This document shows, piece by piece, positions 3,521 to 19,414 of a stretch of DNA of 64,000 nucleotides. The DNA is from Gadus chalcogrammus (lineage: Eukaryota; Chordata; Actinopteri; Gadiformes; Gadidae), in assembly GCF_026213295.1 (NCBI RefSeq), contig NC_079428.1:8566039-8630038 (forward strand), read 5' to 3'. The notes below the pieces were generated by a model. It did no database searches, was not told where the DNA came from, and saw only the letters and a list, made by a program, of their open reading frames with translations. A program made the position numbers and the translations under genes. Each line of letters begins with the position of its first letter. Positions within the stretch are counted from its first letter, which is position 1.

Positions 3521-3684
3521 CAGGGGAGAGCGCGAACGCAGTCCCCCACTACCACAAATTATGCAGTCGAGATTCCCACATTTGAGGAATTCGCACGGGT
3601 CAGCACAGCCGAAGTGCAATGGCTGAGCCTCGCCCTGGGTGAACCACCTTCTTGATCATGGTGTCTCCCCTGCCAGGTAAGTAT
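3521..3684 (-). ncRNA. U1 snRNA, copy 3 (full length)
   Basis: This is a full 164-nt U1 on the minus strand with the intact ACTTACCTG pairing arm and AATTTGTGG Sm site. The PSE is at 3728-3746. A 3'-box-like sequence (GTTGTGGAAATGAAAG in gene sense) follows the RNA end. The upstream region to about 4150 is the inverted equivalent of 2130-2590 upstream of copy 2. It is probably functional. Confidence 0.94.
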
Positions 3685-3746: not shown

Positions 3747-4487
3747 AACATTTTATTGACAACATTACAAAAACGCCTTGACTGACATATTACAATCGAT
3801 CTAATGGTATCCGGCAGAAATAATTCAACCACAAATGACCATTAACGTAATGAATGAAAGAATAACCTGTATCATCCACTGCTGTGTTCTTCTTCTGGGA
3901 TTTTTCTATAAATAATAGCCTTAATGGGGCAACACTGCCCTCTACAGGAGATTTGAGGAATCTAGACTAGAATCGAGATGTCCAACACGCACGACCAACA
4001 ACAATCTTCTGTGTTCTTTCTACAAACCAAATGCAATGAAGGCCACCTTTTTGATGAAGATAATGTCCTTGTTATTTTTGTGGTTCTGAATGTCAATTAT
4101 TAGTTGCAAAACAACCCACACTGTTATTATGCATCTTATAATTCTTCCTTCTGACTTTCAGTAATTATCTCCTACTACATGGTTGCAGGTATAAAAAATT
4201 AGCCCAATGCAAAGAAATACAATTATAAGAACCGTGCACAATTTTAGACTTTTTTTAAAAGTTTTTATTTTTAATATTTACAATAAAATTATTATTTAAT
4301 ATATTATTTGATTGTGGCAAAAGCGCAAAATCAACTACTTAAAACCTGAACACCAGAGAAATGTACAGTTTCATTAGCATGTGTAGACAGGAAGTAAGGT
4401 CTCGAAAAAGTGTTGAAAATTGAAATCATCATGCAAAACAAACCATAAGCCCAAATGATCCTCAATTTGTTCCAAATTCTGCTTGCG

Positions 4488-4572
4488 CAGTCGAGATTCC
4501 CACATTTGAGGGAATTCGCACGGGTGAGCACAGCCAAAGTGCAATGGCTGAGCCTCGCCCTGGGTGAACCAA
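4488..4572 (-). pseudogene. Truncated U1 snRNA, nt 39-122, joined to a LINE tail
   Basis: In gene sense the sequence begins TGGTTCACCC, U1 nucleotide 39, directly after the 3' tail of an L1/Tx1-like LINE (4573-4815). It stops after CTCGACTGC (nt 122), where U1-unit spacer sequence starts. It has one inserted C and a few substitutions. It lacks the 5' splice-site arm, stem-loop I, the Sm site and the 3' stem, so it is non-functional. The 5' breakpoint is identical to that of the copy at 14180. Confidence 0.9.
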
Positions 4573-4815
4573 TTCAATTTTTCCATTTCTAGGCTTTTAT
4601 TTAAGTCAGGCAAAGAGTTACATTTTACGACATGGTTTCAAGGTCAAAACACATTCAAAGGTTAACAAGCAAATAGTTACATTTTACAGCAAGGTCAACA
4701 CATTCAAATGTTAACACAAAATTCTACATAACTCAGTGTTCTCTATTTTCCAGAGTTCCTTACATACCACAATTCCATATCGTTCCTTTTCCCTCCAAAC
4801 ATAATCCTTTAAACC
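4573..4815 (-). mobile_element. 5'-truncated L1/Tx1-like LINE 3' end inserted in U1
   Basis: About 243 bp match the 3' end of the LINE at 13960-14179 (shared features include GTTTGGAGGGA, AACACTG and a tail near AAAATTGAA). In gene sense it runs into U1 at nucleotide 39. It contains only 3' untranslated sequence. The 5' end is truncated at a different point from the other copy and abuts sequence like the 3' flank of U1 units. No target-site duplication could be recognised. Confidence 0.75.
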
Positions 4816-4891
4816 AATCACGAGTCCGCTACTGAGAACTTAGAGGGATATATTACGTAATCACCAAAATATTTATTTTCCACAATATTAT

Positions 4892-5055
4892 CAGGGGAGA
4901 GCGCGAACGCAGTCCCCCACTACCACAAATTATGCAGTCGAGATTCCCACATTTGAGGAATTCGCACGGGTCAGCACAGCCGAAGTGCAATGGCTGAGCC
5001 TCGCCCTGGGTGAACCACCTTCTTGATCATGGTGTCTCCCCTGCCAGGTAAGTAT
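4892..5055 (-). ncRNA. U1 snRNA, copy 5 (full length)
   Basis: This is an intact 164-nt U1 on the minus strand with the ACTTACCTG arm and AATTTGTGG Sm site. The PSE is at 5099-5117. An SPH-like motif (ATCCCAGAAGATGAATAC in gene sense) lies near +210 of the window coordinate 5055, that is about -215. Its upstream flank matches copy 1, so it is the mirror partner of that gene. It is probably functional. Confidence 0.94.
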
Positions 5056-7300: not shown

Positions 7301-8217
7301 CAGGGCTCCACAGTGTGCCCATTTCACTCGCATTTGGGAGTGAATATTTCGGCGTGCGAACGAGAAAAACAAAACCGGGCAATCGTGCGCGTGACATCTC
7401 CTTACGCTAAGTAACGAGTTAATACAGTAACCTAACTACTGTAAAAAGTAAAGTTACGCGCAACTACTGGAAATATGGTAACGGAACATTGTTATTTTTT
7501 CAATTTGGGGCAACATTACTTTTCCCAGGGACAGATTTGACAGCGATACTGCCTTCTTAGGCAGTATGGTATTGTGCAAGCACGCAGGCGCGCAGCAACC
7601 CCCCAGGCGCGCAGCAAGCACGCAGACGCCAGCAAGCTCGTAGGCGCACAGCAAGCACGCTGCAAGCTAACAGGCGCAATAGTCCCTTCACGAGCTCTCA
7701 TTCCACGCCGTACCAGACAGACGCTGGTAGCGTGAAGCTGTCTCTGCATATCAGACATTGCTTCCACAGGCATTTTCCAAAGCCAGTCCTTACAACAAAA
7801 TGCCAGTGGTGGAACGAGATAATAAACGCTGTCACTGTTTACCTGTGTAAGGACATGGTTCCCTTTCAAAATGTCGATAGAAAGGGCTTTAAAGAGATGG
7901 TCAAAACACTCGACCCCAGGTACGCGTTACCTGCCCGCACACACTTCAGCCAAATTGAGACGCCAAAACTATACGGCAAGGTCCGCAAGCAAGTGGTGAA
8001 ACAAATCCATACTATTAAACATCAGTGTTTTTCAGAGATGTAAGTTGAATTTCTTTTTATTTATAGTTTTGCTGCCTTACCTTTTATTTTACCCCTTCAG
8101 AAGCATTTATATCGAAAATAGAAGATACAATTAACATAAGTACCGTGATATAATACCGTTACCTTCGATGCCTCAAATCATACCGTGGTATAAATTTTAC
8201 TCCATACCGTGCAGCCT
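7301..8217 (+). mobile_element. hAT-like (ZBED-type) transposon debris with transposase fragment
   Basis: The frame at about 7732-8042 reads VYLCKDMVPFQNVDRKGF and LDPRYALPARTHFSQIETPK. These are characteristic of the N-terminal core region of ZBED-type hAT transposases. The fragment lacks the BED finger, the catalytic core and the C-terminal dimerisation region. CAGGGCTCCACAGTGT at 7301 and the inverted ACCGTGCAGCC near 8217 could be degraded ends, but they match poorly and no 8-bp target duplication is seen. It appears nested between the two halves of the THAP transposase relic. Confidence 0.55.
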
Positions 8218-8887
8218 TAATTTGAAGGAACTATCTTATGTTAAATTCGTGGCGGGGGGCATTCTTTTTGGAGCAAAAACAACAGCTATTTGTTTGCTTG
8301 ATTCAACTATCGTTAGCTACCACTTTTTTGATGTGATATAATTTACAATTATATTGTATATTTAGGATCGAGTCAACGCCGAGTAGGCCTACTGCACGAA
8401 CGTAGACCTTGCATAAAGTTAGTAAATTCTAACAACATAGGGCTATTTAGATGAATAATCTGGCAAGGATGTTGTTCTAGGCTAATACACCAACAGCAAA
8501 TGTCTGCATAATAAAGGGCTACATTTTCCAAGTCTGTCATTTGAAATCTTTACATTGTATTGTGTGCTATAACATCCGTGATGAATATTCACGCTAAATC
8601 CCGCACAGGGTAGCTAGGAATTCAAGTAGCCGTGTATCCGATCAGTCCGATGATCCCCCCCCCCCCCCCCAGTGGGAATGCAAGGTGAACTATCTTAACC
8701 TCTGAGTTAGAGAGAGGAAGCGATGTATACTAAGATAAAGGGAGAATGTATACAATTCCTTTGATTGTGAATAGTAATTATATAAACAAGGTTAATATAA
8801 TTTGTATATTTTTGTTATTGATATTTCCACAACACTAATGAACATGTTTTAATTAGTCCTATCCATTCTCTCTTTAATTGCACACAG
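8218..8887. other. AT-rich transposon interior, no gene
   Basis: No coding signal is visible. There is a C homopolymer at about 8657-8670. The stretch probably corresponds to intron or inner sequence of the broken THAP transposase element. Confidence 0.35.
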
Positions 8888-9190: not shown

Positions 9191-9227
9191 GTCATTTACA
9201 GGAGAACCATGGTTCTCCTGTAATGAC
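9191..9227. repeat. 37-bp near-perfect palindrome
   Basis: GTCATTTACAGGAGAACC is followed by its inverse, centred on CCATGG at 9207-9212, with one base missing on the right side. It sits exactly where recognisable LINE coding sequence begins. It could be a 5' junction scar. Confidence 0.7.
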
Positions 9228-9453
9228 AGCCCTGAGAAGATGCATTTTTCAGTTTGTGTGGGGAGCGCAGCAGGAGAGAATTAGACGAGACATACTGTAT
9301 AGGCCATTACAGAAAGGGGGTAAAATGTCCCTGATCTAGCAGAGAAAATGGAAGCTCTAATTCTGACGCCCATATTGCAGGCAGTACTAAACGAAAATAA
9401 GAGGAGCCTATGGCCAAATTTCGCCATGTTCTGGGTAGGCCATCAAGTCCTAA
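9215..9453 (+). pseudogene. L1/Tx1-like LINE, reverse transcriptase C-terminal region (left part)
   Basis: Translation gives IFQFVWGAQQERIRRDILYR, then LQKGGK and, after one lost base, VPDLAEKMEALILTPILQAV. This is the conserved segment following the reverse transcriptase palm in L1/Tx1-group LINEs. The frame is broken near 9320. The element is cut at 9453 by the Harbinger transposon and resumes at 13345. The endonuclease and catalytic reverse transcriptase domains are absent. Confidence 0.75.
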
Positions 9454-9599
9454 CTGTGCGTTCACACCAAACGTGAAATTTGTCGCCCGTTCGCGTTGTC
9501 GCCGAAGTTTTGTCGTGCCACAAATCATAATCTGTCTCTCTGCAAGTTTTGTCGAATTTGTCGCGCCACAACTTGACTCCAGGTGCTTCATTCTCAACC

Positions 9600-10976
9600 A
9601 TGGCCGAAATAACGAGCATTGCATGTCTTTACCTTTTGTGGAAGAGGGAGAGACGTCAGAATGCCCATCGTTAGCCGTACAGAGCTCGGCGAATTTCACC
9701 GTCTTCTACAGGAGCTCCGTCTGGATGACGACCGCTTCCAGCGCTATTTGAGGTTGACTCCGGCCCAGTTTGATGACCTGCTAGGTAGGATCGGTGCTAG
9801 GATTTATCGGCTCGACACCAACTACAGGCGCTCCATCTCAGCTACGGAGCGCCTGTCCATCTGTCTCCGGTGAGTGGTAGTTTCATAATTCGTGTGTCAA
9901 AATCGAAACATAAACTTAATAATCTACTTCAGGTTCAACCAGCAGGCGTCTCCATGGTAGACAGCTCCATTTAGTGGAAATAGCAGACTACAGTTTGAAA
10001 TGATTGATTATCCTCTGCCGACAATAGTATAGTAGGCTATGTAGTCAAATACAATAAGTAGATCCATTATTTTGATCAAATATGACTCCTGCCATTTGTA
10101 AATGTTTTTTATTAAAAAAAATTATGAATGAACGGGGCAAAATTATTGTAAATGAATGACACCTATAGTATCTTCCCTACAATCCAATAATTTTCTTTTT
10201 TATTATGCAGATACCTAGCCACTGGGGACTCCTACAGGACCATCGCGAATAGTTTCCGTGTTGGGACCTCCACTGTCTCCAGCATTGTCCCTGATGTTGC
10301 CACTGCAATCTGGGACCGTCTGGTGGAGGAGTTCATGGCTGTGCCCACCACAGATGAGTGGAGGTCCATTGCAGGGAGGTTTGAGGAGCGGTGGAATTTT
10401 CCTCTTTGCTGTGGAGCATTGGATGGGAAACATGTGGTCATCAAAGCCCCTGCTCACTCAGGATCCCAGTACTTCAATTATAAGGGAACCTTCTCTCTTG
10501 TTCTCTTGGCGGTTGTACACGCGGAATATTGTTTCCGGGTGATTGATGTCGGGGGCTATGGAAGAACCAGCGATGGTGGGATTCTGGCCAACTCTGCTTT
10601 TGGTGCAGCGCTTCAGTCTGGCCCCCTCCAACTGCCTGCTGACCTGCCACTAACAGGAGCTGACCACCGAGGACCACAGCCACATGTCTTTGTGGCTGAT
10701 GAGGCCTTTCCAATTCGGAAAAACCTCATGAGGCCATTCCCTGGTCGCAACATGGCAAGAGAGCGCCGGGTTTTCAACTCCCGTCTGTCCCGAGCTCGGC
10801 TGGTTGTTGAGAATGCCTTTGGGATCCGTTCTTCCCAGTGGAGGGTCTACAGGCTTGCCCTCGAGGTCAACGTAGAGGTTGTGGAGAAGTGTGTGAAGGC
10901 TACCTGTGTTCTCCACACCTTCATGCGGAAGACCAACCCCCCCAAGTGCATTGAGGGGGAACATCCCAGCTGGTGA
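9600..10976 (+). CDS. Harbinger transposase (HARBI1-like, DDE_4), one early frameshift
   Basis: This is a DDE nuclease that cuts and joins the element's ends. Exon 1 (9600-9869) starts MAEITSIACLYLLWKRE. It loses frame near 9660 and continues in another frame as SRTELGEFHRLLQELRLDDD. The donor G|GTGAGT is matched by an acceptor at 10210. Exon 2 (10211-10976) encodes a helix-turn-helix (YRTIANSFRVGTSTVSSIV) and the catalytic acidic residues in CGALDGKHVV, GRTSDGGI and VVENAFG. Total length, about 340 residues, is normal for HARBI1-like proteins. Exon 2 is fully open with all three catalytic positions present. Only the frameshift in exon 1 argues against function. Confidence 0.88.
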
Positions 10977-11769
10977 GGTGGACCCACTGCCAGGTCTGGG
11001 AAGAGTTGCTGCCAACAACTCAGTGAGGGAAGCAATCAGGATTCGGGAGGCCTTCACGTCCTACTTCTCTGCTGGGGGAACCGTCCCATGGCAAGACAAC
11101 GTGTAGCGCACCAGCACACACAAAACGGCTCTTTTAAGAGCAACCCACACATTACAATTGAGCAAACTTCCTGAAATTACTATATTAACTATGATCTTCT
11201 GACTTAATGAAGTGTGTTTCCTTAACATACAACAGTAATATGCCATTATTAACTAAGTTTGTTAATGTTAATTTGTTTATATTTTGAAATCAGGTAACTG
11301 ACGGCCCTGAGCCGTCTTGCATCCCTTATGCTGGCCTCTGTTCTTCTTCCAGGGAAGATCGGCTGGCCACCTCATTGAGGGATTGAACTCAGCTGCCGGA
11401 AGCCTGCATAAGATGGGGGGAATCCAACATGGCGCTCTCGCTCTCCCACCTGGAAGGCTGGTGCTGCCTGGCACCCAACTGGGTTTGGTTTGGGGTTGTT
11501 ATTCTAGCCCTTTAGCCTTTGTTTGCATACTCATAGTTTAGTTTGTAAACACCACACTACACTACAGAATACTGATTTGTGTTTTTTTTCAGAGTTACTA
11601 AATAAATGTAACGTACATTTAACTGTCGCTGTGTGGACCTCCCGTTCTTGGTTGTGCTCTTCAACGAGCAGGGCACAACATAACTGACAACAATACCTTA
11701 AGCAAAGTTGCTTGGACCCTAAAATCTGTGGCACAAAATAATTTGCAACATTTCCCTTCAGCAACTTAA

Positions 11770-13085
11770 ATGGCCATTCAATAAAGAATATGAAGCCACA
11801 TTTTTTTAATAAAAATAATCATTTATTGGGGTGTGTGTACAAAAAAATGGGCATGGATCATTCCCTGCAACGATTGTCACCCCAGTGAACCTATTCAGCA
11901 AATGGTTCAAATTGATTTTCCAAATTGAGCAGTTCTGGATTATAGTAACTGTTAGCGTCATGCAATACATTTGAAATTCCATGTGTTCTTTGGCATGGGG
12001 TGGTAATCGTTGCAGGGCAGGAAGTATCCCTTTAAAAAAATGTTCGTCCTCGGAGAGAGGCGCTGGAGGAGGCGGAGGCGCTGGAGGCTGCCTCCTCAAC
12101 ACCTCCAGGAGGCACTTCTCTATCTCTCCCTCCCCCCCACTCCTTCTTTTCTGTGTCCTCACTGTTTCAAATGGAAACAACATTTTTCGGTCAGGTAACA
12201 GACAAAAATACATTCAACATGAAAGGCTATGAGTTCATAACTAGTCATACTCATAACATACCATTCACGCATAGGGACCCTCATGACCACATAAATGAAG
12301 TGTAGCATAAAATAAATAATTTCTCTCATGTTAAATGACATACCTGGGGCCATAGGAGTAGTGGTGACCGCAGCAGTTGGTGATGGTGGTGGAATGGGTT
12401 CAGAGGCAGCAGCAGCCTCCGGCTCCTAACAGCTTGTACAGGTTACATCTTCTGAGGTGACAAGAGGTAGTTATCAATCTATAGACCAAATCATGAGTTT
12501 GTGATGCTGTGTATGGACGAGCGTGTGTCTTCACTTATCGACCAACCTCCTAGGTCACTCGCTGTCCCTGCTGCTGCCTTTGAACCCTGGTCCCCGACTG
12601 GGTACTCTGCAATCCCGTCTTCCTCGACCCCCAGCCCCATATTGCTACTGGTCTCCCTCGGAGTAACAAATGGGTAGAGGAAAGACAGGATTGCGGAGTA
12701 CTTCCACCTCTTTGATGGCCCTGCTGCTGACCCACTCCTTTTTCCCGCCTCTTTCCGTCTCTCTGAGGTAGGTGTCCCTCAGGCCCTTCCATCTCTTGCG
12801 GCAGACGTCCTCTGACAAGAAAAAAAGCTACGTTGTGTAATCCGAACTGAACTGTTGAATGGTAAATGCTAACTCACTAGCTTGGTTCATAGTTAAGTAC
12901 AATTGATAGCTGGAATAAAGTAACTTTTAAAGTAAAGTAAATATAAAAAACTTACCAGTTAGCCCAACCTCTTGGCTCACCTTCTGCCAGGCCCTTGCCT
13001 TCACCGTCAGGTCCTTGTAAGCAGACAAGGTGCAATTAAAAAGCTCAGGCAGAGTGGACACCGAAATGATAATTTTCTCCTCCAT
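11770..13085 (-). CDS. Harbinger MADF-BESS (Myb-like) accessory protein, damaged
   Basis: This is the second Harbinger protein, which in known elements binds DNA and brings the transposase to the nucleus. Exon 1 (13085-12956) encodes MEEKIIISVSTLPELFNCTL and ends at a GTAAGT donor. Exon 2 starts at 12811 (CTTGTCAG acceptor) and reads EDVCRKRWKGLRDTYLRETE, typical of a MADF domain, then degenerates by frameshift. A small exon ends near 12350 at a GTATGT donor. The last exon, from about 12161, encodes a proline-rich stretch followed by SEDEHFFKGILPALQRLPP, a BESS-like motif. The exact C-terminus is uncertain. The gene converges on the transposase gene. Confidence 0.72.
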
Positions 13086-13344
13086 TGCAGTTCGATCTTG
13101 ATCGGGAAGTGAACGCAGATTGGCTGTCATCACGTGAAATTCGCGTCAAAGTTGAAATATTTAAACTTGAGCGAATTTTTTTCGCGCAACAAATCCTCGT
13201 GAACGCGCTCGCCTGTGCACGGCAAAAGTGTGGCGCGACAAATCAAAACCGGTTTTCTCTCGCGAAAAATTCGCCCGATATGCGTCTCTTCATTCACTTT
13301 GTATGGGATCTTGTCGCCCCGTCGCGTTTGGTGTGAACGCACAG

Positions 13345-14179
13345 TAAGGAAAGTGGGGTTAAGACCGTGCCTAAGAAGACCTCATGCAGAGAAGAGGCCT
13401 CTGCTATATGAAAGGGTGGTGACCTTTGTAAAGTCTGGAAAGTGGCGGGATGTTGGTCGGGTAGACTGAGCCTTTGTAGGGAGCTCTTTGATTCCTGAAC
13501 GGTCAAGGCTGGTTACTGTTGGCTGCCTTAGGGTGTGGAGAAATGTTAATTCGCCATTTTGTTCAATGCTTATAGAGATCTCGCTTGGCAGACAGTTCAG
13601 AGGTGTCTCCCTACACGAGAATTTCTGAAGAGACGGGGGTCATCTAAGAACGCAAGATGTCCCAGGGTGGGGTGTGTGGAGACGAGGATGTTTCGCATTT
13701 GTTGTGGTCGTGTGGGGTGGCTCGGAGGGTTTGCCGCTTATTGGGGCCATGGCTGGGTGACCTGTTTAGAGTCCCCACGGAATCAGAGTTCCTGTATGGG
13801 GTTATACAGAGTGGTGATTGTAAGGGATGGGAAAGATGGTGGGCCTTGATTAATTGCATAAAAGAGTTGATTTGGAGGTGTACACTAATGGTGTACAAGA
13901 GCCTTTTGTTTTCAGTGGAATCTAGTTAATTTGAGCATAACCTTGTTAAAGGATTATGTTTGGAGGGACAAGGAACGATATGGAATTGTGGTATGTAAGG
14001 AACTCTGGAAAATAGAGAACACTGCGTTATGTAGGATTTTGTGTAAACCTTTGAATGTGTTGGCCTTGCTGTAAAATGCAACTATTTGCTTGTTAACTTT
14101 TGAATGTGTTTTGACCTTGAAACCATGTCGTAAAATTTAACTTTGTGCCTGACTCAAATAAACGCCTAAAAATTGAAAT
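13345..14179 (+). mobile_element. L1/Tx1-like LINE, 3' part, ending in U1 snRNA
   Basis: This is a continuation of the LINE at 9215-9453 across the Harbinger insertion. The reading continues VGLRPCLRRPHAEKRPLLYE and, after stops, LPTREFLKRRGSSKNARCPR. A C-x4-C...H-x4-C zinc knuckle (ending SHLLWSC) follows, typical of the reverse transcriptase zinc-binding domain at the C-terminus of L1/Tx1-group LINEs. The 3' untranslated tail contains CAAATAAACGCC, ends AAAAATTGAAAT and runs directly into U1 nucleotide 39 at 14180. Multiple stops and frameshifts make it inactive. Confidence 0.82.
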
Positions 14180-14305
14180 TGGTTCACCCAGGGCGAGGCT
14201 CAGCCATTGCACTTCGGCTGTGCTGACCCGTGCGAATTCCCCAAATGTGGGAATCTCGACCGCATAATTTCTGGTAGTGGGGTTCTGCGTTCGCACTCTC
14301 CTCTG
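14180..14305 (+). pseudogene. Truncated U1 snRNA, nt 39-164
   Basis: The 126 nt correspond exactly to U1 nucleotides 39 to 164, beginning TGGTTCACCC immediately after the LINE tail. The 5' splice-site arm and first stem are missing, and the Sm site region reads AATTTCTGG. The downstream sequence retains a 3'-box-like GTTTTTGTGAAAAATAAAT. This is the remnant of a U1 gene disrupted by the LINE. Confidence 0.93.
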
Positions 14306-14977: not shown

Positions 14978-15141
14978 ATACTTAACTGGCAGGGGAGACA
15001 CCATGATCAAGAAGGTGGTTCACCCAGGGCGAGGCTCAGCCATAGCACTTCGGCTGTACTCACCCGTGCTAATTCATCAAATGTGGGAATCTCGACTGCA
15101 TAATTTGGGGTAGTGGGGGACTGCGTTTTCGCTCTCCCCAG
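14978..15141 (+). pseudogene. U1 snRNA variant/pseudogene with altered 5' splice-site arm
   Basis: The sequence is full length (164 nt) with a proper PSE, but the 5' end reads ATACTTAACTGG. C8, which pairs with the first G of introns, is replaced by A. Other changes include TGTACTCACC in the second half, GTGCTAATTCATC before stem-loop III, the Sm site AATTTGGGG, and CCCCAG instead of CCCCTG at the end. It lacks the distal element. It is most likely a decaying pseudogene. If transcribed, it would be a U1 with altered splice-site pairing. Confidence 0.85.
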
Positions 15142-19250: not shown

Positions 19251-19414
19251 ATACTTACCTGGCAGGGGAGACACCATGATCAAGAAGGTGGTTCACCCAG
19301 GGCGAGGCTCAGCCATTGCACTTCGGCTGTGCTGACCCGTGCGAATTCCTCAAATGTGGGAATCTCGACTGCATAATTTGTGGTAGTGGGGGACTGCGTT
19401 CGCGCTCTCCCCTG
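19251..19414 (+). ncRNA. U1 snRNA, copy 8 (full length)
   Basis: This is an intact 164-nt U1 with the ATACTTACCTGG arm, TGGTTCACCC, the AATTTGTGG Sm site and the CTCTCCCCTG end. A PSE and a candidate distal element are present. The 3' flank (ATAATGTTGTTCAATGTAA) is unlike the other copies, so the repeat unit ends here. It is probably functional and is the last member of the cluster in this window. Confidence 0.94.

What the first reader, a model, noticed from the sequence alone, without database searches (positions are those of the whole stretch)
9215..14305. LINE that appears to target U1 snRNA genes at nucleotide 39
The tail of an L1/Tx1-like LINE ends exactly before U1 nucleotide T39 at 14179/14180, leaving U1 nt 39-164. 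A second LINE tail joins another U1 copy at the same base (4572/4573). The two tails differ in sequence and 5' truncation. Some Tx1-group LINEs are known to insert specifically in multicopy RNA genes, for example U2 snRNA. A U1-specific lineage would fit this pattern, and the encoded C-terminal zinc knuckle is present.
Basis: partly seen in the sequence, partly recalled or inferred. Interest (0 to 1): 0.88.

Follow-up and report, generated by a model that had tools for sequence, protein, structure and literature searches.

The report
LINE that inserts into U1 genes
A fish genome carries a recently active jumping gene that copies itself into one fixed position of the genes for U1, a core RNA of the splicing machinery, a target for which only a cut-and-paste transposon turned up in the literature we searched.

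Summary
In the 630-Mb genome that holds the window, a search with LINE body alone (no tail, no U1) scored 25 of 25 candidates; 23 keep the 3' end, and 20 of those run into U1 nt 39/40. Of 163 U1 nt 40-59 sites, 22 are split there, each by this LINE. Thirteen loci also have U1 nt 1 to 44-55 directly upstream, giving target duplications of 5-16 bp. Ten different 5' breakpoints exclude one duplicated insertion, though several copies are duplicates. Full-length copies (about 5.05 kb) encode ORF1 (ZCCHC3-type RNA-binding domains, three CCHC motifs) and ORF2 (APE endonuclease, reverse transcriptase, zinc finger; nearest solved relative human L1 ORF2p). Two copies have both frames open. The window copies are older and broken; the larger is split by a Harbinger transposon. 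Known snRNA-targeting LINEs hit U2; the U1-targeting elements I found are Dada DNA transposons. Placement in the Tx1 clade could not be tested, and no other species was surveyed.

The parts
9219..9453 (+). Older, 5'-truncated LINE copy A, first piece (element positions 3947-4182, ORF2 coding region)
   Evidence: 95.3% identity to the L025 element; ends in TAA, the TSD of the nested Harbinger
9454..13344 (.). Harbinger-type DNA transposon nested in LINE copy A (TIR CTGTGCGTTCACACCAAACG, TSD TAA)
   Evidence: TIR and TSD; DDE_Tnp_4 in 10191-10976, E=1.7e-29
13345..14179 (+). LINE copy A, second piece: broken ORF2 C-terminus with zinc-finger DNA, 3'UTR and tail
   Evidence: element 4180-5039 at 13345-14178, 90.3% identity
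14180..14305 (+). 3' part of the interrupted U1 gene, nt 39-164
   Evidence: 94.4% to intact U1; Rfam U1
4572..4812 (-). LINE copy B, 5'-truncated tail (element from about 4809)
   Evidence: 95.4% to the L025 element; 233 bp at 93.6% to copy A
4487..4571 (-). U1 fragment nt 39-122 following LINE copy B
   Evidence: 96.5% identity
1023..1186 (+). intact U1 gene
   Evidence: Rfam RF00003, 162.4 bits
2590..2753 (+). intact U1 gene
3521..3684 (-). intact U1 gene
4892..5055 (-). intact U1 gene
14978..15141 (+). diverged U1 gene copy
   Evidence: Rfam 126.3 bits; 94.4%
19251..19414 (+). intact U1 gene

Best explanation
This is a family of U1 snRNA gene-specific LINEs (non-LTR retrotransposons of the L1/Tx1 group). 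Shown: full-length copies of about 5.05 kb carry two frames; the 22 U1 copies lie in the orientation of U1, joined at their 3' end to U1 nt 39/40 by a short variable A-rich or ATTGAA-type tail; in 13 loci U1 nt 1 to 44-55 precedes the element, so 5-16 bp of U1 (from nt 40) is duplicated; many copies are 5'-truncated; the young group is 0.1-2.4% divergent. Inferred: the APE-type endonuclease of ORF2 recognises the stem-loop I region (about AAGGT/GGTTCACCC), nicks the bottom strand opposite nt 39/40, the RT copies the element RNA from that 3' end (target-primed reverse transcription), and top-strand cleavage 5-16 nt downstream gives the duplication. Full-length copies sit directly behind a U1 upstream flank and nt 1-44, so the U1 promoter may drive their transcription (not tested). 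Redundancy of U1 genes (163 nt 40-59 sites) probably makes the load tolerable. The window holds two decayed older members.
For: Genome location. Body-only search: 25 of 25 candidates scored; 20 of the 23 with a 3' end are followed by U1. 163 U1 nt 40-59 sites; 23 lack G38, of which 22 are LINE junctions and one is an uninterrupted U1 with a point change. 5' junctions and TSDs at 13 loci. Ten 5' breakpoints. Tails of 7-45 nt. Domains; best solved relative human L1 ORF2p, E=1e-79. ORF2 open over its full length in 4 copies (L021, L025, L028, L031); both frames open with an intact 5' end in L025 and L028. Pooled pN/pS 0.49 (ORF2, 10 pairs) and 0.43 (ORF1, 10 pairs). In L022 and L033 the unit that carries the LINE in U1 also holds U2 and 5S genes matched over their whole models.
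Against: 3 of 25 read 3' ends are not in U1: C11 (near U5 genes, no clear U1-like target) and C6 twice (matching flanks, so probably one event; target TTGGTTCATTCACAGG resembles the U1 site). Several copies are array or segmental duplicates, so 22 copies are fewer events. WinA, WinB and their mirrors, L017, L023/L032/L035 and L031 lack the U1 5' part next to the element. The nick was not assayed. Single-pair pN/pS values run from 0.31 to 1.01 for ORF2 and rest on few differences and non-independent pairs. The genome search skips common words and scores only best candidates, so old diverged copies elsewhere may be missed; a tail-only search did not complete.
Confidence: 0.93

Rival explanations
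1. One LINE insertion in one U1 gene was copied along with the multicopy U1 arrays (unequal crossing-over, segmental duplication, gene conversion), so the shared junction shows common descent and not targeting.
For: Some copies share their 5' breakpoint: L019=L030, L033=L034, L023=L032=L035; L027 and L028 differ by 1.4 per 1000. Window copies recur as mirror images in L018.
Against: Ten different 5' breakpoints besides full-length copies; TSDs of different length at the same 3' site; copies in two U1 gene types, 5 canonical and 17 variant.
Confidence: 0.04
2. An unspecific LINE whose copies survive only in U1 arrays, because those arrays tolerate or amplify insertions; the site is a mild sequence preference and not strict recognition.
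For: Three read 3' ends lie elsewhere, two of them at a U1-like sequence.
Against: The 22 U1 insertions share one site, although units such as those in L022 and L033 also offer U2, 5S and kilobases of spacer.
Confidence: 0.04
3. U1 acts through its RNA: chimeric U1-LINE transcripts (U1 3' part fused to LINE RNA) are reverse-transcribed, so U1 sequence is carried cargo and not the target.
For: L1 can make snRNA chimeras (recalled; PMC4476161 was seen in a search listing only).
Against: U1 nt 1 to 44-55 and a TSD lie on the 5' side at 13 loci, with U1 upstream flank and, in L022 and L033, downstream 5S: this is the genomic gene, not cargo.
Confidence: 0.02

Closest known systems
Keno (LINE specific for U2 snRNA genes; PMC4640811 and PMC3706591, passages; Tx1-clade membership recalled)
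   Same: APE-type endonuclease LINE of animals including fish that inserts at a fixed site of a multicopy snRNA gene
   Different: Target is U1 nt 39/40, not U2; U2 genes in the LINE-bearing units of L022 and L033 match over the whole model. Relationship of the RTs not tested.
Mutsu (5S rRNA) and Dewa (tRNA-Leu spacer) (named in PMC3706591, passage; Tx1 placement recalled)
   Same: Site-specific LINEs on multicopy RNA genes in zebrafish
   Different: Other targets; the 5S genes called in L019, L022, L023 and L033 match over the whole model
Dada-U1 DNA transposons (PMC3706591, PMC8869645; passages)
   Same: Target U1 snRNA genes in fish
   Different: DDE transposase, TSD GCGAAT/GCGAAC, a motif further downstream in U1; here a LINE at nt 39/40 with 5-16 bp TSD
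Utopia (RLE LINE, U2 snRNA; PMC4640811, passages)
   Same: snRNA-gene-associated LINE with precise 3' junction and variable 5' junction
   Different: Restriction-like endonuclease and U2 target; here APE endonuclease (PF03372) and U1
Human L1 ORF2p (PDB 8sxt)
   Same: Best solved homologue over EN-RT, E=1e-79
   Different: L1 is not target-specific and its ORF1 differs (recalled)

Membership tests
L1/Tx1-group LINE (APE-type non-LTR retrotransposon) | ORF2 with N-terminal APE endonuclease and LINE reverse transcriptase | tested here: met
   PF03372 E=8.4e-10, PF00078 E=1e-32; human L1 ORF2p E=1e-79
L1/Tx1-group LINE (APE-type non-LTR retrotransposon) | C-terminal zinc finger in ORF2 | tested here: met
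   PF13966 zf-RVT 986-1039, E=5.1e-8
L1/Tx1-group LINE (APE-type non-LTR retrotransposon) | TPRT hallmarks: 5' truncation, TSD, variable A-rich 3' tail | tested here: met
Tx1 clade | RT groups with Tx1/Keno/Mutsu in a LINE tree | not testable with these tools
   protein database switched off; own-genome protein search not answered in 13 tries; no named Tx1 sequence at hand
Tx1 clade | ORF1 with CCHC zinc knuckles (recalled trait) | tested here: met
   Three C-x2-C-x4-H-x4-C motifs read by eye in P0002; Pfam zf-CCHC E=0.0047, below its curated cut-off. Not diagnostic alone.
Site-specific retrotransposon | Most copies at one base of one target | tested here: met
   22 of 25 read 3' ends; duplicates included
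Keno | Insertion in U2 snRNA gene | tested here: not met
   Target is U1
Dada-U1 | DDE transposase, 6-7 bp TSD at GCGAAT of U1 | tested here: not met
   RT/APE proteins, insertion at nt 39/40

The most novel reading that the evidence does not exclude
The first U1 snRNA gene-specific LINE lineage, recently active, living partly inside tandem units that also carry U2 and 5S genes and using the host U1 promoter as its own, so that its full-length RNA begins as a U1 transcript; recognition of the stem-loop I site would be a new endonuclease specificity, usable for targeted insertion.
Probability: 0.35. Interest if true: 0.75.

Novelty: new variant of a known kind. Interest (0 to 1): 0.6.

Why it matters
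Site-specific LINEs are rare and each new target is a natural experiment on how an endonuclease acquires specificity. A 2015 paper says that only Keno and Utopia (U2), Dada-U1 (U1) and Dada-U6 (U6) had been reported for snRNA genes (PMC4640811, passage), so a U1-specific LINE would fill a gap. Copies with both frames open make it testable in cells. Some of the target units hold three multicopy RNA genes (U2, U1, 5S), of which this element uses one. It also offers a possible insertion tool with a multicopy landing site.

Tried and rejected
Considered and rejected: one duplicated insertion as the full explanation (ten 5' breakpoints; TSDs); chance junctions; Dada-U1 (wrong site and proteins). 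One U1 site without G38, C16:25749720, was a possible exception; it proved to be an uninterrupted U1 with a change at nt 38. The Rfam U1 search of the genome scored 42 of 8192 candidates, so it was used for positions only, not for counts.

Led nowhere: structure prediction of ORF1 from one sequence, mean pLDDT 39.7, not used; viral-contig scan with ORF2, no match; NCBIfam, only matches below the curated cut-offs for ORF2 and none for ORF1; solved structures for ORF1, only weak zinc-knuckle matches; Kojima 2015 (PMC4494074) and Kojima and Fujiwara 2004 are not held. tRNA scan of the window found none. Seven literature searches on retrotransposons and U1 or related terms listed no U1-targeting LINE; subscription papers and Repbase Reports are not covered.
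Full report
WHAT IS IN THE WINDOW. Rfam finds seven U1 matches, one of them partial, and BLAST adds a second partial U1. Both partial copies begin at nt 39: 14180-14305 (+) and 4571-4487 (-). Both follow the tail of the same LINE; the tails are 93.6% identical over 233 bp. The larger copy is split by a Harbinger-type transposon at 9454-13344 with TSD TAA. Relative to a full-length element the window copies start at positions 3947 and about 4809. The frame of the larger one is broken. Neither has U1 nt 1-38 on the 5' side; copy B's 5' end abuts the 3' flank of a neighbouring U1 gene.

GENOME-WIDE TEST. The window is C17:8566039-8630038 of a 629.9-Mb genome in 168 contigs. A junction query (200 bp of tail plus 51 bp of U1) had 40 of 171 candidates scored and gave 42 matches; 20 of these span the whole query, tail and U1. 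To avoid bias I then searched with LINE body only (window 13400-13900); 25 of 25 candidates were scored. Twenty loci of about 10 kb and four of about 1 kb were read. Of the 25 body copies, 20 are followed by U1 nt 39/40, three by other DNA (C11 once, C6 twice), and two (C81, C80) lack the 3' end in the stretch read. Adding the short copy B and its mirror gives 22 U1 junctions. An independent pattern search gives the same number: of 163 U1 nt 40-59 sites, 23 do not have G at nt 38; 22 are these LINE junctions and the last is an uninterrupted U1 with a point change. The reversed-pattern control gave 0 in both searches. Nineteen of the 22 have T and three (C101) have A before GGTTCACCC, so the U1 part begins at nt 39 or 40.

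BOTH SIDES OF THE INSERTION. Thirteen loci have U1 nt 1 to 44-55 directly upstream of the element. Counted from nt 40, the duplicated stretch is 5 bp in L025, L027, L028 and L029, 7 bp in L020 and L024, 10 bp in L019 and L030, 11 bp in L033 and L034, 12 bp in L026, 14 bp in L022 and 16 bp in L021. Truncated copies with U1 on both sides start at 983, 2793, 2834, 3057, 3781 and 3978, some with 1-8 extra bases. Tails are 7-45 nt of AAAAATTGAA-type or A-rich sequence. These are marks of target-primed reverse transcription (established knowledge of LINEs).

INDEPENDENT EVENTS. Duplicates exist: L019=L030, L033=L034, L023=L032=L035 (position 2910, with array spacer on the 5' side), L027 close to L028 (1.4 differences per 1000), and the window copies with their mirror images in L018. 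After merging, six truncated types with U1 on both sides remain, plus at least one full-length event. Four further 5' breakpoints (1142, 2910, 3947, about 4809) have U1 only on the 3' side and could have been altered by later deletion. L017's 5' end is fragmentary with an inverted piece.

EXCEPTIONS. The two C6 copies have near-identical 3' flanks, so probably one event; they are followed by TTGGTTCATTCACAGG, close to the U1 site. The C11 copy lies about 0.4 kb from a U5 snRNA gene in a cluster of three, with no clear U1-like target.

THE ELEMENT. L025 carries 5049 bp between the U1 halves. ORF1 is 476 codons stop to stop (464 from the ATG used), with two ZCCHC3-type RNA-binding domains (E=3.8e-19 and 2.3e-23) and three CCHC motifs seen by eye. 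ORF2 is 1144 codons stop to stop (1132 from the ATG), with APE endonuclease, RT and zf-RVT. ORF2's best solved homologue is human L1 ORF2p (1e-79), with R2 far behind (7.5e-20). ORF2 is open over its full length in L021, L025, L028 and L031; ORF1 in L024, L025, L027, L028 and L029. Pairwise difference in the young group (L019-L035) is 0.9-24.4 per 1000; the window and C16 copies differ from it by 35-77 per 1000. Pooled pN/pS is 0.49 for ORF2 and 0.43 for ORF1; single ORF2 pairs run from 0.31 to 1.01, on few differences and non-independent pairs.

TARGET. Two U1 types are hit: the canonical genes of the window clusters (5 of 22 junctions, the older copies) and a variant type (17 of 22, the young group). 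Four loci of the variant type were scanned (L019, L022, L023, L033). In L022 (C5) and L033 (C101) the LINE-bearing unit also holds U2 and 5S; in L019 and L023 a 5S gene lies next to a U1 copy and no U2 was called. The U2 and 5S genes called inside those loci match over the whole model, apart from one U2 cut by the locus end. Linkage of U1 and U2, and of other U snRNA genes, in fish is known (PMC4696792, passages); linkage with 5S is recalled. In the Rfam structure the site is where the 3' strand of stem-loop I begins.

MECHANISM, SHOWN AND INFERRED. Shown: precise 3' junction, TSDs, truncations, same orientation as U1, open frames. Inferred: bottom-strand nick at nt 39/40 by the APE domain, priming of reverse transcription there, second cut 5-16 nt downstream. 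Speculative: transcription from the U1 promoter, suggested only by position (30 nt of U1 upstream flank seen before the interrupted genes).

NOVELTY. [quoted passage not shown] Searches listed no U1-targeting LINE. Repbase Reports and subscription papers were not searchable, so an entry may exist. I call it a new variant of a known kind: a site-specific APE LINE with a new target.

LIMITS.

Noticed in passing
window 24352-63760: Long palindrome, centre about 44478 with no spacer: 99.6% identity in the central and the outer block, 89-98% between. The centre lies in a coding region that resembles kdm6b (recalled). Mirrored U1/LINE copies in L018 show that it extends beyond the window. Real palindrome or assembly fold-back not decided.
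   Followed up: partly
L031 1-4659 and L041 3723-5043 (contig C88): The 5' end of one U1-LINE copy is fused to what looks like 28S rDNA carrying an R2-like element (RVT_1 frame; 28S and R2 site recalled), with 18S-derived sequence further upstream. Template jump onto an R2/28S transcript, or misassembly.
   Followed up: partly
L017 (C16), reverse-complement 7383-8432: Another U1 gene carries an insertion of about 0.9 kb with an 8-bp TSD (AGGGCGAG, nt 49-56) and inverted ends CAGTGGCGGCGCCAG, like a hAT-type element (hAT label recalled).
   Followed up: no
L022 6291-8813 and L033 5145-8813: U2, U1 and 5S rRNA genes lie together in one repeat unit.
   Followed up: partly
P0002 (ORF1, L025:5029-6459:-): ORF1 matches both RNA-binding domain families named after ZCCHC3, which suggests that ZCCHC3 and this LINE ORF1 share an origin.
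   Followed up: no
L036 (C11) 136-2855: The one clearly off-target copy lies beside a cluster of three U5 snRNA genes.
   Followed up: partly
L039 101-586 and L040 (reverse complement) 1-459: Two LINE fragments without 3' end lie about 0.1 kb downstream of the 3' part of a U1 gene.
   Followed up: no
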